The notes below the pieces were generated by a model. It did no database searches, was not told the DNA's origin, and worked only from the letters and a program-made list of their open reading frames with translations. This document shows, one piece after another, positions 20,650 through 38,116 of a stretch of 54,585 bases of DNA. The DNA is taken from NCBI GenBank assembly GCA_900095095.1, contig FMBT01000120.1:1-54585 (forward strand), given 5' to 3'. Made by a program: the position numbers and the translations under genes. The DNA is from Fragilariopsis cylindrus CCMP1102 (taxonomy: Eukaryota; Bacillariophyta; Bacillariophyceae; Bacillariales; Bacillariaceae). Each line of letters begins with the position of its first letter. The first letter of the stretch is position 1.

Positions 20650-21661
20650 GGGCCGTTATACTCGTGCGAAAATCAGTGTACTTTTTCATGTACTTATGAC
20701 TAAAAAAAAAGTACATCGATCGAAATGCCAGGTACATGAAATAACCTACCCAAATATGGGTGGAGGTTTTTCCATGTACTTTTTTTTTTTGCCCTGTCTT
20801 TTTGGTCTGTCCTGCCGTATGGGTCCCCAGTTTTTCCCTTTTTTAATTCGTATTGCCTTCCATTAACAATCTTGTTTTTACAACTACAAGTACTACTGCC
20901 TTTACAACCTATCAATTAATTGACTACAGATCGATCAGTTGAATTAAAATAAACCATTATAGTTTAATGTGACGGGAATAATGAAGATGAGGATCCACCC
21001 AGCGGCATGGAGGTGCGGCTTTTATTTATTTAATTAAGTTGATTCTACTAAGATACAAATGATTTTGATTTTTTTGAAAAAACACGTCCAACATACTCGT
21101 TGATAATGGGTTCTCTCTTAATGTACCAATAATAATAAAAATTAACGCATTGACTAATAGAATAGTAATGGAGACATCTGTATTAGCACTTTATCTATTA
21201 ATCCATTATTTAATTTTTAATTCTTCTCTCTTATGCACCTCTTCCTGGCGATTCGAAATTTGCCTGCCACCCATATACATCCTCATAGAATTTTCCCCAT
21301 CAGTCAAATCAATCCTAACTAATTTTACCTGATTAACCGTATTTATATCTAAAATCCGACACCCTATTTGTATTGATTCGTCCGTACAAGTGGAGATTCA
21401 GTTAATAACATTTCCCATTGTCATGATGATGAGATAATTTTCCATTTCAATTCTTAATGCACATAAAAATTAAAAAATGGGGGTTAGAAAAGGGGTTGTT
21501 CATTTTATAAATAAAATACAAGCTTAAACCCCTCAAAAAAGTACAGCGAATTTTTACCTAACTGTTATACTCGCGCGAGGGTGATTTGATGTACTTTTGG
21601 TTAAAATGAGTCATAAGTACACCAAATAAGTACACTGATTTGCGCACGAGCATAACGGCCC
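20650..21661. mobile_element. Non-autonomous DNA transposon (MITE-like, PIF/Harbinger-type ends)
   Basis: The left end at 20650 starts GGGCCGTTATACTCGTGCG. The reverse complement of the right end at 21661 starts GGGCCGTTATGCTCGTGCG. The two ends match over about 51 bp (20650-20700 and 21611-21661) with few differences. TCA directly flanks both sides (20647-20649 and 21662-21664), consistent with a 3-bp target duplication. A 3-bp TNA duplication and GGGCC-type termini suit the PIF/Harbinger superfamily; this is inference. A third partial copy of the end lies inside at 21564-21598 in the left-end orientation, so the right end can fold into a hairpin. No transposase frame is present. Confidence 0.75.
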
Positions 21662-22717: not shown

Positions 22718-24349
22718 ATGTTTAGCCTCCCTCCAGTTGCAACGGTTGTGATCGATGATGCACTTGAGTTTATCTATTCGTTTGGACCATTGGCCGAAAA
22801 AACTTTGGTTTTGGGTAAGTAATAATAGTATAGTATTGGATTATTTGTGACGAGATTGATCCAAAAACAAACTTAATCAATGTACTCAACGATTTTATGT
22901 TATGTTATATTACGTGTTAATTTATCTTTTTTACACAGTTCCAGATGCTTTGAGAGATCAAGTAGCTGTCGTCGCCGATATGGCGGGTATGGATACAGAA
23001 ACTATATCATACGTTCTTGGGTTATTTGTTTGCTACCCACTTGGTATGATCATGGCTCAAATTCCGTACGGAATGCCAAGACACATCTTTTCATTTATTC
23101 TTGGTGCCTTCCTTCTCCAGTTTACATTAGGCGTCCAATGGATCCATCAGCTTATTAGTTCCTTGATTGCATACGGTATGATTTTAGTTCTACCACGCAA
23201 GACGCTTAAGATGGCATTACCTATTTTTGCTATGCTTTATATGACCCTAGGTCATCTCCATAGACAATATATTAATTATCTTGGTTGGGATTTAGACTTT
23301 ACAGGAACCCAAATGGTTTTGACCATGAAACTCTATATGATCGGATATAATTTGTATGATGGTGAACTTTTGGCTAAGGGTACCGACAATCGAGCTGCGA
23401 AGAAGTGTGCACCGTTCGCATTGGAAAAAGCACCGGGGTTACTAGAATTTCTTGGTTATACCTTTTGCTTCTCAAACATACTTGCCGGTCCTGCTGCAGA
23501 ATACTCAACATATTAAAGGCAATTGATGGAAGTATTTTCAAGAGAGCCGATGGAACATCGAAGATACCAAGTTGTATTTGGAAGACTCTCGAACCACTTC
23601 TTACCAGTCTATTAAATTTAGCTATTTTCATGACACTTAGCGCTAAGTTCCCTCTACTTAATGAAACCGATCCGCAACATGCCACCCCATTCATCCTTGG
23701 GTCCGAATTTATGGCAAGACCTATCTATCTTCGTTTTTTACACGCATGGTTAGGATTATTTGCCCTTCGTGAGAAGTACTACTTTGGATGGAAGAACGCC
23801 GAGGGTGCACAAAATATTTGGTATGCAGGATTTGATGGATGGGATAAGGATGGAAATGAAAAGGGTTGGGAAACTTCGAATAATATTGACATTATCGCCT
23901 TTGAAACAGCCCCGGATGTTTCTAGATTGTCAAGAAGCTGGAACAAAAAGACATCCAATTGGTTGTCTCGTTATGTGTACATGCGTCACGGTGGTAACTT
24001 AATGGCTGTATATTCCATGAGTGCATTCTGGCACGGATTCTACCCAGGATATTATATCTTCTTCATGTCTGTTCCTTTGCCTACATTCTGTGATCGAATG
24101 GCCAAGAAGAAACTCTCACCGTACTTTTCAACATCGGATTATTCTTTGTACGGTATCATTGGTACACTGGCTACAACGATTACAATTAACTATATGATTT
24201 TACCATTTAATATGCTTGATCGAACATGGTCATTTGAAGCATACAAGAGCTTCTACTTCTTTGGTCACATCGGTTGCATTGTTTATTACGTCGCTCTATC
24301 TATGCTTCCGAATGCTGCGAAGAAGGACGACAAGAAAAAAATTGCATAG
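22718..24349 (+). CDS. MBOAT-family lysophospholipid acyltransferase
   Basis: Exon 1 is 22718-22814 and exon 2 begins at 22939 after a 124-nt intron (GTAAGT/CACAG). The frame breaks at the TT at 23513-23514, where one added T turns AEYSTY-stop into AEYSTYLKAIDG and rejoins the downstream frame to the stop at 24349, giving about 503 residues. It has several hydrophobic helices and the family motifs: LGHLHRQYINY, NILAGPAAEY, SWNKKTSNWLSRYVYMR and SAFWHGFYPGYYIFF, the last carrying the catalytic His. The pattern is closest to LPCAT/ALE1-type enzymes, which re-acylate lysophospholipids at the ER. Exact substrate cannot be read from sequence. The ending KKDDKKKIA is a Lys-rich tail suited to ER retention, although not a strict KKxx signal. 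Confidence 0.9.
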
Positions 24350-24974
24350 GAAGGAAATTATTATATAATATGTTCTAATAATAATACTATTAAGAACATA
24401 TTCAAAGGAAAAATGATATTTTCATACCAATATGAAGTATGGTTTGAGATTGTGCATGCTTGTGTGTGAGAGAAAGATTGACCATGCTAGAAAATTTAAT
24501 TAAAGTGTTTGCAAAATTGACGATATAGTTTTAGGAACGTATCTTTTTCGACAATTTAGATTAATTACGCATCATTACATGTAATTGAAGGAGAAGACTT
24601 TCTCTCTTGAATTGGGGGCATAAGGAATATCAGTTTGTGATGGAAACATGTTGCTTCTTTTTGCCAAGTATCATTGTCGATGGTAGCTAGTTAATGTTAG
24701 TGGTAAAGAGTTTCTTACACACATTCATGTAGCACTATCCAAACTTCAACAAAAACATAACCTTTAGGGCTGACTAATCTAAGATATATTATCAAATATA
24801 TATAAACAACTCATTAACGTACATTACAGTATTGAGGAGAAGAGCAAAATCTCGTAAGGGGCCGATTTCGATTTGTACATTATTGTTGTATTATTACTCC
24901 TGTAATTATATAGAGCTAAAGTGACTAACTCAGTACTTCGGACGACAGCAGACGGAACCAATGTCAGCCATCTA
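24350..24974. other. Spacer, no gene seen
   Basis: 3' flank of the acyltransferase gene. AT-rich, with nothing recognisable. Confidence 0.4.
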
Positions 24975-25300
24975 TTAATTTTTGTTCAGTTTACGTAATA
25001 AGGTTAGATTATTACGACGTGAATGGCGAGCATCAAATCTTCTGTCTTTTTTGCTTTTTCGACTTGCGTTGTCAACCTCATAGTTCCTCAAAACTTTGTG
25101 GTGAAGACATAGCATAGACGAGCGCCCCGTAACAATGTTACCGAGGGCATGTTGCCATTCAATGGTCACAAGCTTGTTTGGGAAATTCCCCGAATGTAAT
25201 CGCAGAGATGCGACTTCGGAAACGAAAACCGGTAGATGGTTTGCCACTCCTGCAACGACGGCTTCTTTTTGAGAAGCAAGAGCTTTGGAGTAGGCCTGCT
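24975..25300 (-). CDS. Small basic hypothetical protein (possibly partial)
   Basis: An open minus-strand frame reads AYSKALASQKEAVVAGVANH, then LPVFVSEVASLRLHSGNFPN, then about 65 residues ending in the basic tail DRRFDARHSRRNNLTLLRKL plus NKN and a stop at 24975. Amino-acid use looks coding (even composition, basic tail like a small ribosomal or RNA-binding protein), but I recognise no family. There is no good in-frame ATG. An ATG in the next frame at about 25308 (MAAAGLL) would need a 1-nt shift. The tRNA repeat block begins 20 bp further upstream. Could be a decayed gene. Confidence 0.3.
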
Positions 25301-25354
25301 GCCGCCATTAGAGCAAAGTTATGCTATCAAACTCAACGGGGATTACTCTCACCA

Positions 25355-25365
25355 CAAAATAATAG
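25355..25365 (+). promoter_or_regulatory. TATA-like element upstream of tRNA-Sec copy 1
   Basis: CAAAATAATAG lies 18-28 bp before the tRNA 5' end and recurs in copy 2. Copy 3 has CAAAATGATAG. Eukaryotic tRNA-Sec genes are usually driven by upstream TATA and PSE elements, so this placement is suggestive. No PSE could be identified. Confidence 0.3.
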
Positions 25366-25382
25366 AGGAACTATCCAATTTT

Positions 25383-25469
25383 GTGCGCATGATCCAATTT
25401 GGTAATTGGTACAGGCTTCAAACCTGTAGACGGCTAACGCCGTAGTTGTTCGATTCAACCTTGCGCACG
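25383..25469 (+). tRNA. trnU(uca): tRNA-Sec (anticodon TCA), copy 1
   Basis: Folds into the eukaryotic 9/4 form. The acceptor arm pairs GTGCGCATG with CTTGCGCAC (9 positions, T-T at position 8, as recalled for the human gene), followed by G as discriminator base. The D arm is CCAATT-TGGT-AATTGG (6 bp, 4-nt loop). The anticodon arm is ACAGG-CTTCAAA-CCTGT with TCA. The long variable arm is ACGGC-TAAC-GCCGT and the T arm GTTG-TTCGATT-CAAC (4 bp). Six-bp D stem, long variable arm and TCA together define tRNA-Sec, which is charged with Ser by SerRS and converted to Sec to read UGA in selenoprotein mRNAs. No T4 terminator follows closely. Confidence 0.96.
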
Positions 25470-25545
25470 TACGTACATTGGAAATGCTATCAAACTCAAC
25501 GGGGATTACTCTCACCACAAAATAATAGAGGAACTATCTAACTTT

Positions 25546-25632
25546 GTGTGCATGATCCAATTTGGTAATTGGTACAGGCTTCAAACCTGTAGACGGCTAA
25601 CGCCGTAGTTGTTCGATTCAACCTTGCGCACG
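25546..25632 (+). tRNA. trnU(uca): tRNA-Sec (anticodon TCA), copy 2
   Basis: Identical to copy 1 except C to T at acceptor position 4, giving a G-U wobble pair (GTGTGCATG with CTTGCGCAC). All arms, anticodon and discriminator G are intact, so it is probably functional. Confidence 0.95.
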
Positions 25633-25708
25633 TACGTACATTGGAAATGCTATCAAACTCAACGGGGATTACTCTCACCACAAAATGATAGAGGAACTAT
25701 CTAACTTT

Positions 25709-25795
25709 GTGTGCATGATCCAATTTGGTAATTGGTACAGGCTTCAAACCTGTAGACGGCTAACGCCGTAGTTGTTCGATTCAACCTTGCGCACG
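25709..25795 (+). tRNA. trnU(uca): tRNA-Sec (anticodon TCA), copy 3
   Basis: Same sequence as copy 2 across the tRNA, with the acceptor G-U wobble. The 5' flank differs by one base in the TATA-like string. The 3' flank diverges after 25809, and no run of four or more T occurs close by. Confidence 0.95.
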
Positions 25796-25948
25796 TACGT
25801 ACATTGGAAATTTGACTTTAGTCTTGATAATAACAATCTTTAATATAAAATAATTAGTATTATACGTAGCTATTTCTATATAAATGTTTCGATACTGTGC
25901 AACACGTCATAACAAATTACACTATTATTTGAAATGGTCTTTAACTAT

Positions 25949-28700
25949 CTAATTTACTCTCCACACCAAATTCTTGACAGGTTGTGACCCGATCGAAGGA
26001 AAATCTACTGACATTGGCTGTATCCGTTCAAGTTTTGATTGCACCCCTGCTCTTTCCAGGCCTGTTTGACATGAAGTTGTAAACTTAAGTGAAGATAGAC
26101 TGGCATTGTTGGTGCTTGTAATCATAATTCCTCCCTTTTTCACTAATGGAGCAGCCATCTGAACGAGTTCAGCCATATCACGCCCTACACTCCAACGCTT
26201 CTTCTTCTTTCCAACACTCGAGCTGGGGGGATCTAAAATCACAACATCGTATTTTTCACCTCTCTTGGATAATTTTTCTAACCATTCAAAACAATCACCA
26301 TAGATGCAATCGTGGCGCTCGTCAAAGTCGATTCCATTCGCCTCAAGTTGGGGCTCAATTCGGTCCAACCATTTCTTATTCAGATCAAGACTTACTGTTG
26401 ATGCTCCCGCTTTGGCGGCGGCAATTGTAAAAGCACCACAATGTGCGAAACAGTTCAAAACGTGAGTATCTTCATTACAATACCGAGAGAGCCAAGCCCG
26501 ATGCGGTCGCTGATCCAAAAATATTCCAGTAGACAAATCTCGATCTAATGATACGTGGTAGGTGATCCCGTTCTCAAGAATTGGGACAATCTCAGGAGCT
26601 TCTCGACCTTCAATCAATAGGGGTCGAATTTTGTCCTTAGAGCCCATGGCCGCACGATCTTGATTCGATGGTAGGAGGTAAACTCCGGCAGTATACCCAT
26701 CGTGTATCGATGGTAGAGGACCTCGAGGCTCCTTTTCATCGTGTTGCACAAAAAGCCAGTCACTATATCGATCAACGGTCCAGCCAGGAAAACCATCGGC
26801 AGCTCCATTCACCTCTCGGTATGAATTCGTTAGAGGGTTATCGCGAAGAGACTGACGACCTAGAAACGACCCTTCCTGAAATTTGTGATTATTAAGGCGG
26901 TCGGAGAGAATTGCAATGTCGTCCGGGATTTCAGCAGTCTCGGCCTCTGCAGTTTCATCAAACAATAAGCTCGACACTGACATCGAATTACAATGAATAA
27001 GTCGTCGAGGAGCTCTACGATCGAAAGGATTGGCTGCAGGATCTCCACGAATACCATCTTCAAATTGAGCCTGTGCATGGTTGATAACATTTGAGCAGGT
27101 AGAAAGATGTTCCGAAATTACAAATCGTACTGTCTGGGATACATCACCTTCTCTGCCTTTTCTGACTCTAGATATCATATCCACCTGAAAGGCATCATTT
27201 GGTAAGGGCTTTGCATCCTTCTTCGATTTAAAAGCAAGGAAATTGCCGTTCCCGACGACAGCTACATACTCGGCGTAGTCAATGAAGAGATTCGCGACGT
27301 TTTTCTTTGGGCAAATCAGTACCAGTCCAGAATCATCAACATCAGTTGCACCAGCTAAAGCAGTCCAAAATTTTCCACCCCGTATTGGATTCCCTTCATC
27401 CTCTCTTTTCTTTTTAGCCACGAAACAATTGAAGGTCTCTGATAGGACGAGAAAGAAGCAGCATCGTCTTTATTTTTCACTAATCTTGCTTTTATTCTTT
27501 TAAGATTTTCAACCGTACTTTGATCAATACCTTCTTCATCCATTGACTCGTACCTTTGTTGGATACTATCATTGCTTTTATCGTTGTTCGGTTCTTCTTT
27601 ATTCGCGTCGTATTCCTGACGTTCTTCGGGAGACAATAACGCAAGTATATCCGCCTCATCAAAATTTTCTGGTACATCGTTTGGATCGTAATCTTCATCC
27701 TCAATGCCAGCCTCCTCACGCTCTTTAGCTGTCATGCTTTTAACATCGGACCATCCAGGAATATCGATCTTGTTAGCTGTACCTGCTGATGAATCAAACA
27801 AGGAATCAGAATCAGCCTGCTCTTCGAGCATAGCCTCCCTCTCTTCTGGCGACAACAAGGCCAGGACATCAGACTCATCAAATTCAATAAATTCATCCTT
27901 TCCATTTTCATTTTTGATTCTTATCGTTTTGATTGTGTTTTTTGGTTTGTTAGATGGACCCTTAGTATTTGGAACCTTTTTGGGTGCGGGCGACGATTGT
28001 GGCTGCTTGGGGGTCGTCTTTTGCTTTTTGGAGATACTGCCACCCAAGATGGACCAACCTGCAGGTTTATTGATCAAATAGGCATAGGAACCACTAGCAC
28101 CATTTCCAGTGTCATCATCTTCCACACGAATTTGACCTACAATTTCTGGTTCCACTGTGTCTACCAATGGATCACAATGTTGATTGGCAGGATTTGATAG
28201 TCCCGTCTTTTTCGCCTCAAGTATATGGATACTATCTTTATTTGTGCTCATATTCGTATTTGGACTCTTTCTTTCAACGTCGTCGCCGTTATCATTTTCT
28301 TGTGATCTGTCATCATTTTTGGACTCGCCACCACGTTGGGAAGCGTACACATATCTTGTTTGGGATTATCGGTTCGCTGTCGTGTACGCTTATTTCTTCG
28401 GCCATTCTTTTTTTGTTTCTCCATAGTTGATCCAGCATATTTTTCTTGATTCCTGAGTAGTTCCTTTTTTAAAGCACCAATTGTCGTCTGCTTCTTCTTG
28501 AAATTATTACTGTTTTCTGTATTATCGTACCGTTTCTCTTTTTCCACCGCATTTAAGCTAGTCGCTCTAGGCATTACTGAGGTCGTCGTAGGAAGAATGA
28601 ACGCAGTGACATAGTAAAATTGAAATATAGCACCTAGTAAAAGTAATGTCCTGCAACTAGTAGATATGTGCGCGCCCGTCGTGGCATGTCTTTTCGGCAT
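25949..28700 (-). CDS. Plastid-targeted RlmI-type SAM-dependent methyltransferase
   Basis: One gene of about 917 codons from the ATG at 28700, split into three frames. One added base at each of the plus-strand T runs 28359-28361 and 27411-27415 joins them (minus strand NPKTRYVYASQRGG and VSWLKKKREDEG). The N-terminus is a signal peptide ending YYVTAFILP, a diatom plastid ASAFAP-type site. The middle ~350 residues hold LINKPAGWSILGG and two copies of an FDE-D-LALLSPEER motif. The C-terminal ~490 residues are a PUA-plus-Rossmann methyltransferase: VNGAADGFPGWTVDRYSDW, STGIFLDQRPHRAWL, NCFAHCGAFTIAAAKAGA (SAM site) and YDVVILDPPSSS (motif IV). The family methylates a cytosine (m5C) in large-subunit rRNA; action on plastid 23S rRNA is inference. 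Confidence 0.8.
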
Positions 28701-36589: not shown

Positions 36590-37028
36590 AATAATTTGAG
36601 GAGGAACTGGAGTATGATAAATATGTATACAAATAATCAAGGTGCAACAAAAAGGAGCTGTTGTTGTCCACAGCTGAAGAAAATTGCAATAACAAGAATC
36701 AAGCAAGAGAACATCTTAGAACATGATTTGGATAGTGTTTTTTCTGAAGATGACATCAGACAGGATTGTAAAGAAGAGTTACATAAGTATAAGAAATGTG
36801 TTCCAAAAGTTTCAATGAAAGGCAAGTTTCCCCATGCCATTGCTTGGTGGAAGAAATATGAGAAGCATTTTCCACATCTAGATGCATTAGCCCACAAATA
36901 TCTATCTATTCAAGCTACACCTGCGCTGTGCTTCGAAGTAGAGAATTTTTGGTCTAGCTGGTAGAATAATTGAGGATGGATGTACAAGATTTGATCCTCA
37001 CACGGCTGGAAAATTACTATGTAGCTAG
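36590..37028 (+). mobile_element. hAT transposase relic (C-terminal dimerisation domain)
   Basis: A frame ending at 36964 reads KYKKCVPKVSMKGKFPHAIA then WWKKYEKHFPHLDALAHKYL and SIQATPALC, a clear match to the hAT C-terminal dimerisation region (pattern WW-x-x-x-x-x-x-FP-x-L-x-x-LA-x-x-x-L-x-I-x-AT). The expected continuation is in another frame: RIFGLAGRIIEDGCTRFDPH then TAGKLLCS up to 37028. The catalytic parts and both ends are missing, and no terminal inverted repeats or 8-bp duplications were found. It is therefore a dead fragment. Confidence 0.8.
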
Positions 37029-38116
37029 TGATTAATTATGGATGGTACGATATACTGTAAATTGGAGAGTATAATTTTTTTAATTAACTACTACATCTAT
37101 AATTTATATCTTATACGTGCATTTGTCAGTGAGAGTCACGCTCATTTATGAACTCATTAGCAACAGATTACTACAAAAAAGCTATAAAATTCCCCCCAAT
37201 ATTTGAAGGGAGTGGCCAAATGCCGTGGTGGCGTTGGGCAGTCTCCACTAAAAACCCATCAATCATGCTTCAACATGCAAACATCGCTTACATACACTTA
37301 TTGTTTGAAAATATCAGCAGCGATACGGGTATGCAGTGCGATGCCAGAGGCAATTATAATGAAAGTGTACTAGTTGCAGGGCCTTCCGGCACTGTAAATA
37401 TTGTGGGAGTTGGTTGAAGTCTAATAATTTGTTCTTTTGAAAAACGGGTATGCTCAGCGTGGAGCATACCTGCTTCCCTAAAAGTGGGTAGGGACACCCG
37501 CTTTACTAACCTGCTTTGTAAAAAAGCAGGTACCCATACCCGCTTTGTAAACCCACTTTGTACAAAAGCGGGTATGCTCCACGCTGTAAACACTGTAATA
37601 GAATAATTTTCATACCCGCTTCCCTAAAAAGCGGGTAGGGATAACCGCTTTGCTTACCCACTTCGTAAAAAAGCAGGTATTGGGTAACCGCTTTTGCAAA
37701 AATTAACATAATTATTTAGTTTCTACGAAACCCCCAAAATTTATTAGTGCCGCAAGGCCCCAGTACAATACTTAGTATTGTATCTGGAACGTGAACCCAG
37801 AGAAGGAGGGAGGCAAACAACTCCCCCCACTCCCCCAACGTCAACATACCAGTAGCAACAATAGAACATAGTCTTCAGAAGCCTACATAACGAATACGAC
37901 ATCTCAACGGAGTAATTATAATAAAAAAGTGATACCTTGAAATGTCATATCAACAAGAGGGCTCTTATCCACGATATACGAGTCTTTGTTTTGTCATGAA
38001 GAAACGCTGAGTCAAACACTAAACATCAAATCGTTTATTATCAAGACTAGCAGCGTCTTCGGCAATCCACAACCGGCCTCTCTCGCTCTCTCTAATATAC
38101 GTTACTATTTTTGACA
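37029..38116. other. Spacer with hairpin-forming repeat cluster
   Basis: Between the hAT relic and paralogue B. An 89-codon frame at 37148-37417 has no recognisable motif. The repeat cluster at 37441-37700 is listed separately. Confidence 0.4.
37441..37700. repeat. Cluster of inverted TACCCGCTTT / AAAGCGGGTA repeats
   Basis: At least ten variants of TACCCGCTT or its complement AAGCGGGTA occur in 260 bp. Nested within are perfect 15-bp arms, AGCGTGGAGCATACC at 37456-37470 and its reverse complement at 37569-37583. The block can fold into several alternative stem-loops. Confidence 0.8.

What the first reader, a model, noticed from the sequence alone, without database searches (positions are those of the whole stretch)
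25321..25809. Three head-to-tail tRNA-Sec genes in identical 163-bp units
Each unit carries a complete 9/4-type selenocysteine tRNA with a 6-bp D stem, TCA anticodon, long variable arm and discriminator G. tRNA-Sec is normally single-copy or nearly so, and a tandem triplicate is unusual. It suggests either selection for high UGA-Sec decoding, as in marine algae rich in selenoproteins, or very recent unequal crossing over. Copies 2 and 3 share an acceptor G-U wobble that copy 1 lacks, which gives the order of duplication.
Basis: partly seen in the sequence, partly recalled or inferred. Interest (0 to 1): 0.88.

Follow-up and report, generated by a model that had tools for sequence, protein, structure and literature searches.

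The report
Tandem tRNA-Sec trio in a diatom
A polar diatom carries three head-to-tail genes for the selenocysteine tRNA at this spot and ten more copies elsewhere in its assembly; that it has many copies was already published, and the tandem layout, the copying between loci and the lack of the usual stop signal behind most copies are details added here.

Summary
Window 25321-25811 has three 163-bp head-to-tail units, each with a full eukaryotic tRNA-Sec. The units are nearly identical, with 1 to 4 differences. The genome is almost certainly Fragilariopsis cylindrus: contig C90 has exactly the length of that assembly's longest sequence. It holds at least 13 tRNA-Sec genes on five contigs. I read these as three loci: this array on two haplotypes (C547, C69), a second trio on two haplotypes (C56, C138) and a single gene (C678), so 7 per haploid set.

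Multi-copy tRNA-Sec in F. cylindrus is published (PMC5330540); T. cruzi has eleven tandem copies (PMC12421993).

Added here: C138 carries the window's spacer where its allele C56 does not, so units were exchanged between loci. Only 1 of 6 distinct Sec 3' flanks has T4 within 32 nt, against 46 of 46 ordinary tRNA genes. Read-through or Pol II transcription is my inference; no RNA data were available.

The parts
25321..25483 (+). Unit 1 of the 163-bp tandem array (62 bp upstream, 87-bp tRNA-Sec, 14 bp downstream)
25484..25646 (+). Unit 2
25647..25809 (+). Unit 3
25383..25469 (+). tRNA-Sec copy 1, acceptor pair 4 is C-G (derived)
   Evidence: 80.2 bits
25546..25632 (+). tRNA-Sec copy 2, acceptor pair 4 is U-G
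   Evidence: 78 bits
25709..25795 (+). tRNA-Sec copy 3, acceptor pair 4 is U-G
   Evidence: 78 bits
26033..26036 (+). First run of four T downstream of copy 3 (+237), inside the neighbouring methyltransferase reading frame on the other strand

Best explanation
The array is a real tandem triplication of intact, probably functional tRNA-Sec genes in the nuclear genome of Fragilariopsis cylindrus. It is one of three loci of a family of about 7 genes per haploid set. The family keeps its tRNA fold through compensatory changes, and tRNA-plus-spacer units have been exchanged between loci. Each gene would make tRNA-Sec that is charged and converted by the usual eukaryotic route (SepSecS is present). 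Transcription most likely uses the internal B box; with no T4 close behind most copies, read-through from one copy into the next is likely, giving longer precursors cut apart by RNase P and RNase Z. Shown: copies, fold, near-identical contig pairs, exchange, missing T4. Inferred: haplotype reading, expression, read-through, processing. The confidence is for the gene family and its history; for the read-through step alone it is about 0.35.
For: Gene calls and scores. 13 copies over the cut-off on 5 contigs and 13 by DNA search. C547/C69 align at 99.2% over 8.1 kb, C56/C138 at 98.75% over 9.8 kb. Among 7 distinct tRNA sequences 96.2% of 210 cells pair and 6 of 30 pairs change on both sides, 5 of them among the 6 D-stem pairs; 0 of 500 shuffles reach the covariation score. 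C138 from its Sec2 to its Sec3 differs from the window at 5 of 251 positions, while its allele C56 is only 38-64% identical to it in the three 50-column bins of that spacer. SepSecS on C651. T4 within 32 nt: 46 of 46 ordinary tRNA genes, 1 of 6 distinct Sec flanks, Fisher p 2.3e-6.
Against: No RNA evidence. C56_3 has a second broken acceptor pair and the lowest score, 64.8, and may be decaying. Haplotypes are inferred from identity, not from phased reads. In one search one measure goes the other way (further pair types 11, shuffled mean 12.6, 499 of 500 shuffles as high) and 5 of 500 shuffles reach the number of two-sided pairs. The 32-nt limit was set after seeing the ordinary genes, and the Sec flanks come from one family. 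RF00031 (SECIS) found none, but rang in none of the 14 prokaryote controls either, so it says nothing.
Confidence: 0.82

Rival explanations
1. tRNA-Sec in this diatom is transcribed by Pol II, or by Pol II as well as Pol III, as reported for trypanosomatids, so no T4 is needed.
For: T4 missing close behind 5 of 6 distinct Sec flanks. A box weaker than in ordinary tRNA genes. L. [quoted passage not shown] In the window and at C678 the genes lie behind a same-strand gene.
Against: B box as in ordinary genes. At C56 the nearest gene upstream is on the other strand. C56_1 and C138_1 have T4 at +11 and +10. No polymerase data.
Confidence: 0.2
2. The extra copies are kept by selection for high Sec decoding in a selenoprotein-rich alga.
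For: Diatoms are reported to have 20-44 selenoprotein genes (PMC7539508, passages) and F. cylindrus 36 (PMC5330540). Most copies keep the fold.
Against: PMC5330540 says that the genomes with several copies do not have especially many selenoproteins for their groups. Not tested here.
Confidence: 0.3
3. The triplication is an assembly artefact of a single gene.
For: PMC5330540 found that many identical tRNA-Sec predictions in genomes look like assembly artefacts.
Against: The units differ from each other, and the array is the same on two contigs with differing flanks. The array is 491 bp, while the published assembly used PacBio reads with read N50 of 8.2-8.9 kb in its 20-kb library (PMC5634323 passages).
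Confidence: 0.04

Closest known systems
F. cylindrus multi-copy tRNA-Sec in the Secmarker study (PMC5330540)
   Same: Very probably the same species and genes: eleven non-identical predictions, some with compensatory mutations, two with a disrupted pair (passages).
   Different: In that text the words 'tandem' and 'terminator' have 0 hits. Layout, haplotypes, exchange between loci and missing T4 are added here. Its supplementary alignment figure was not seen.
Trypanosoma cruzi tRNA-Sec array (PMC12421993)
   Same: Eleven tRNA-Sec copies in tandem at one locus (passages).
   Different: Unrelated lineage, one locus, more copies.
Leishmania major tRNA-Sec (PMC6463643)
   Same: tRNA-Sec set apart from other tRNA genes in how it is transcribed (passages).
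   Different: [quoted passage not shown] here only the missing T4 hints at something unusual.

Membership tests
eukaryotic tRNA-Sec | UCA anticodon | tested here: met
   13 of 13
eukaryotic tRNA-Sec | 9/4 fold, 6-bp D stem, long variable arm | tested here: met
   13 of 13 by stem check, except that acceptor pair 8 is not a standard pair in any and C56_3 has one more broken pair
eukaryotic tRNA-Sec | discriminator G73 | tested here: met
   13 of 13
eukaryotic tRNA-Sec | covariance score over the family cut-off | tested here: met
   13 genes at 64.8-80.2 bits, cut-off 47
eukaryotic tRNA-Sec | Sec machinery in the same genome | tested here: met
   SepSecS on C651; PSTK, EFSec and SBP2 were not searched
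eukaryotic tRNA-Sec | serylation, conversion and UGA decoding | not testable with these tools
   needs biochemistry
ordinary Pol III type-2 tRNA gene | internal A box | tested here: inconclusive
   1-2 mismatches to a recalled consensus in the 8 of 13 Sec genes tested; of 46 ordinary genes 43 have 0 and 3 have 1
ordinary Pol III type-2 tRNA gene | internal B box | tested here: met
   2-3 mismatches to a recalled consensus in the 8 of 13 Sec genes tested; ordinary genes 0-4
ordinary Pol III type-2 tRNA gene | T4 or longer close behind the gene | tested here: not met
   window copies: none in 400 nt, none in 400 nt, +237; 46 of 46 ordinary genes within 32 nt. C56_1 and C138_1 do have it (+11, +10)
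U6-type external Pol III promoter | TATA element shared by this genome's U6 and U4 genes | tested here: not met
   8 of 13 Sec upstreams tested: best match 7-8 mismatches of 19, as in background; U4 has 0
U6-type external Pol III promoter | PSE of the U6 genes | tested here: inconclusive
   10-14 mismatches of 25 in 8 of 13 Sec upstreams; C138_1 (10) is in the lowest 3.5% of background. U4, U1 and U2 upstreams also have 12, so the test has little power

The most novel reading that the evidence does not exclude
In this diatom tRNA-Sec, unlike the ordinary tRNA genes sampled, is mostly made without the Pol III stop signal, from tandem genes read into one multi-copy precursor or by Pol II, and its copies spread between chromosomal loci as whole tRNA-plus-spacer units.
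Probability: 0.3. Interest if true: 0.62.

Novelty: new member of a known kind. Interest (0 to 1): 0.4.

Why it matters
tRNA-Sec is generally assumed to be a single-copy gene (PMC5330540), so a genome with about seven per haploid set is a natural test of whether its dosage limits selenoprotein synthesis. If the missing T4 reflects another polymerase or a shared precursor, tRNA-Sec would have been set apart from other tRNA genes in a lineage far from trypanosomatids. The C56/C138 pair is also a clear case of exchange of a tRNA gene unit between loci.

Tried and rejected
U6-type promoter for the Sec genes: no U6/U4-like TATA upstream; the PSE test had little power. A 9-base match to the U6 PSE seen by eye about 150 nt before C56_1 was not tested on its own. 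Shared upstream element among Sec loci: of 10 pairs only C56_2/C56_3 are strongly alike (z 14.8); C56_1 with C56_2 and with C56_3 weakly (p 0.008, 0.016), W1/C56_3 p 0.04, the other six not. Sec genes as read-through products of same-strand neighbours: fits the window and C678, not C56. SECIS count: RF00031 gave 0 and rang in no control. U5: none, same caveat. U1: three hits, all below the cut-off. tRNA-Sec patterns in viral contigs: 0 for two patterns. The two sub-threshold Sec hits (C23, C451) are tRNA-Ser(TGA). Direction of the window/C138 exchange: not decided, since the window's spacer is also distantly like the C56 spacer.

Full report
What is there. ARAGORN finds three tRNA genes in the window, all tRNA-Sec(TCA), at 25383-25469, 25546-25632 and 25709-25795. 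Rfam RF01852 gives 80.2, 78 and 78 bits (cut-off 47). TRF reports 163 x 3.0 at 98%. Units 1/2, 1/3 and 2/3 differ at 3, 4 and 1 positions, so 'identical' is too strong. The fold is the eukaryotic 9/4 form; acceptor pair 8 is not a standard pair in 13 of 13 genome copies. The array lies between an MBOAT gene on the same strand, ending at 24349, and a methyltransferase gene on the other strand, 25949-27469.

Whose genome. Its contig C90 is 1,265,703 bases long, exactly the longest sequence given for Fragilariopsis cylindrus in Table 5 of PMC12159174 (section 17 read). That table gives 1028 sequences and 69 Mb, so the held copy would be a subset. The first relatives of two window proteins that bear a species name in the lists are Pseudo-nitzschia multistriata, 80% for the methyltransferase; for Prp18 P. 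multistriata is at 64%. No protein named as F. cylindrus is among the 120 rows listed in either search, which I cannot explain; the name rests on the length match.

Copies in the genome. RF01852 finds 15 matches, 13 over the cut-off (only the best 53 of 3172 candidates were scored, so 13 is a lower bound). The two below it are tRNA-Ser(TGA). A DNA search with the unit also gives 13. They lie on C547 (the window, 3), C69 (3), C56 (3), C138 (3) and C678 (1). C69 aligns to the window at 99.2% over 8.1 kb, C56 to C138 at 98.75% over 9.8 kb. I read these as two pairs of haplotypes plus one locus without a second contig, 7 genes per haploid set. The published assembly did keep alternate contigs (PMC5634323, passages).

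Function of the copies. Among 7 distinct sequences 96.2% of 210 cells pair, and 6 of 30 pairs have changes on both sides, 5 of them among the 6 D-stem pairs. The covariation score was reached by 0 of 500 shuffles, the number of two-sided pairs by 5 of 500, and the number of further pair types by 499 of 500, which goes the other way. Related rows inflate such measures. C56_3 has an extra broken acceptor pair and the lowest score, 64.8. SepSecS is present on C651.

History. The array is identical over 491 bp in C547 and C69; the 24800-26400 stretch differs by one indel only; 8091 aligned positions have 26 mismatches. The triplication is therefore probably older than the split of these two haplotypes, though polishing may have removed differences (a passage of PMC5634323 says it possibly did in places). 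U-G at acceptor pair 4 is found in 11 of 13 copies, so copy 1's C-G is derived. C138 from Sec2 to Sec3 has the window's spacer and period, with 5 of 251 positions different. Its allele C56 is 64, 38 and 42% identical to it in the three 50-column bins of that spacer, and 94-100% in most other bins; the exceptions are the alignment ends, 64% and 84% in two upstream bins with indels, and 88% in the bin over the middle of Sec3. So a unit was exchanged between loci. The direction is open: the C56 spacer is itself distantly like the window spacer (score 15 against 7.5 +/- 1.5 in shuffles).

Transcription. Of 63 tRNA matches I left out 7 on C419, which looks organellar (inferred), and the 2 tRNA-Ser copies. 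The other 54 loci gave 56 ARAGORN rows; one intron-bearing Sec call that overlaps a tRNA-Ala was dropped as spurious; 46 of the remaining 55 are distinct. All 46 have T4 within 32 nt and 45 within 22. Two AT-rich ones may be organellar; without them it is 44 of 44, p 2.8e-6. On C419 three genes seen had T4 at +8, +112 and +38. For the Sec genes the first T4 lies at: window copies 1 and 2, none in 400 nt; copy 3, +237; the three C69 copies the same; C56 +11, +81, +45; C138 +10, +208, +45; C678 +43. These are 6 distinct flanks, 1 of them with T4 within 32 nt (p 2.3e-6; the limit was set after seeing the ordinary genes). In a 76-bp spacer the lack of T4 is no surprise by chance (my estimate); what is odd is the lack of a signal that every sampled ordinary gene has. 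U6 and U4 share a TATA element at -30; the 8 Sec upstreams tested lack it. The U6 PSE is not found there either, but U4, U1 and U2 lack it too, so that says little. The B box is as in ordinary genes and the A box weaker.

What is known. The Secmarker paper reports eleven non-identical tRNA-Sec predictions in F. cylindrus, some with compensatory mutations, lists 4 tRNA-Sec and 36 selenoproteins in its Table 3, and calls the significance of such duplications unclear (passages). T. cruzi has eleven tandem tRNA-Sec copies (passages). L. [quoted passage not shown] My searches for tRNASec with gene copies and diatom (2 of 2 listed), tRNASec with tandem (20 of 83 listed) and Fragilariopsis with selenocysteine and tRNA (8 of 8 listed) showed no paper that, from titles, abstract starts and the passages I read, describes the tandem layout or missing terminators in F. 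cylindrus. I did not read every listed paper, and most subscription journals are not held.

Verdict. A real and unusual array in a genome whose tRNA-Sec multiplicity was already noted. Added here are the layout, the exchange between loci and the missing T4, which makes a testable prediction about transcription.

Noticed in passing
window 20651-21661: About 1 kb present in the window but absent from C69; part of it (21055-21264) is 80% like sequence near the tRNA-Ser(TGA) genes of C23 and C451. Possibly a mobile or repeated element.
   Followed up: no
window about 36717-37580: About 0.87 kb in the window has no direct counterpart in C69; a piece near its end is repeated.
   Followed up: no
L088 (U4), L017 and L018 (U6), about -30 from the gene start: U4 and U6 share the same TATA element (0 mismatches in U4), unlike the U1 candidate and U2 upstreams tested, so U4 may be a Pol III gene in this diatom.
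   Followed up: partly
L084 (C651:13064-13414): The second SepSecS segment contains one in-frame TGA; intron, frame choice or recoding not examined.
   Followed up: no
L009 4744-4830 (C56_3): Mosaic tRNA-Sec copy: upstream like C56_2, D arm like C56_1, plus a broken acceptor pair.
   Followed up: partly
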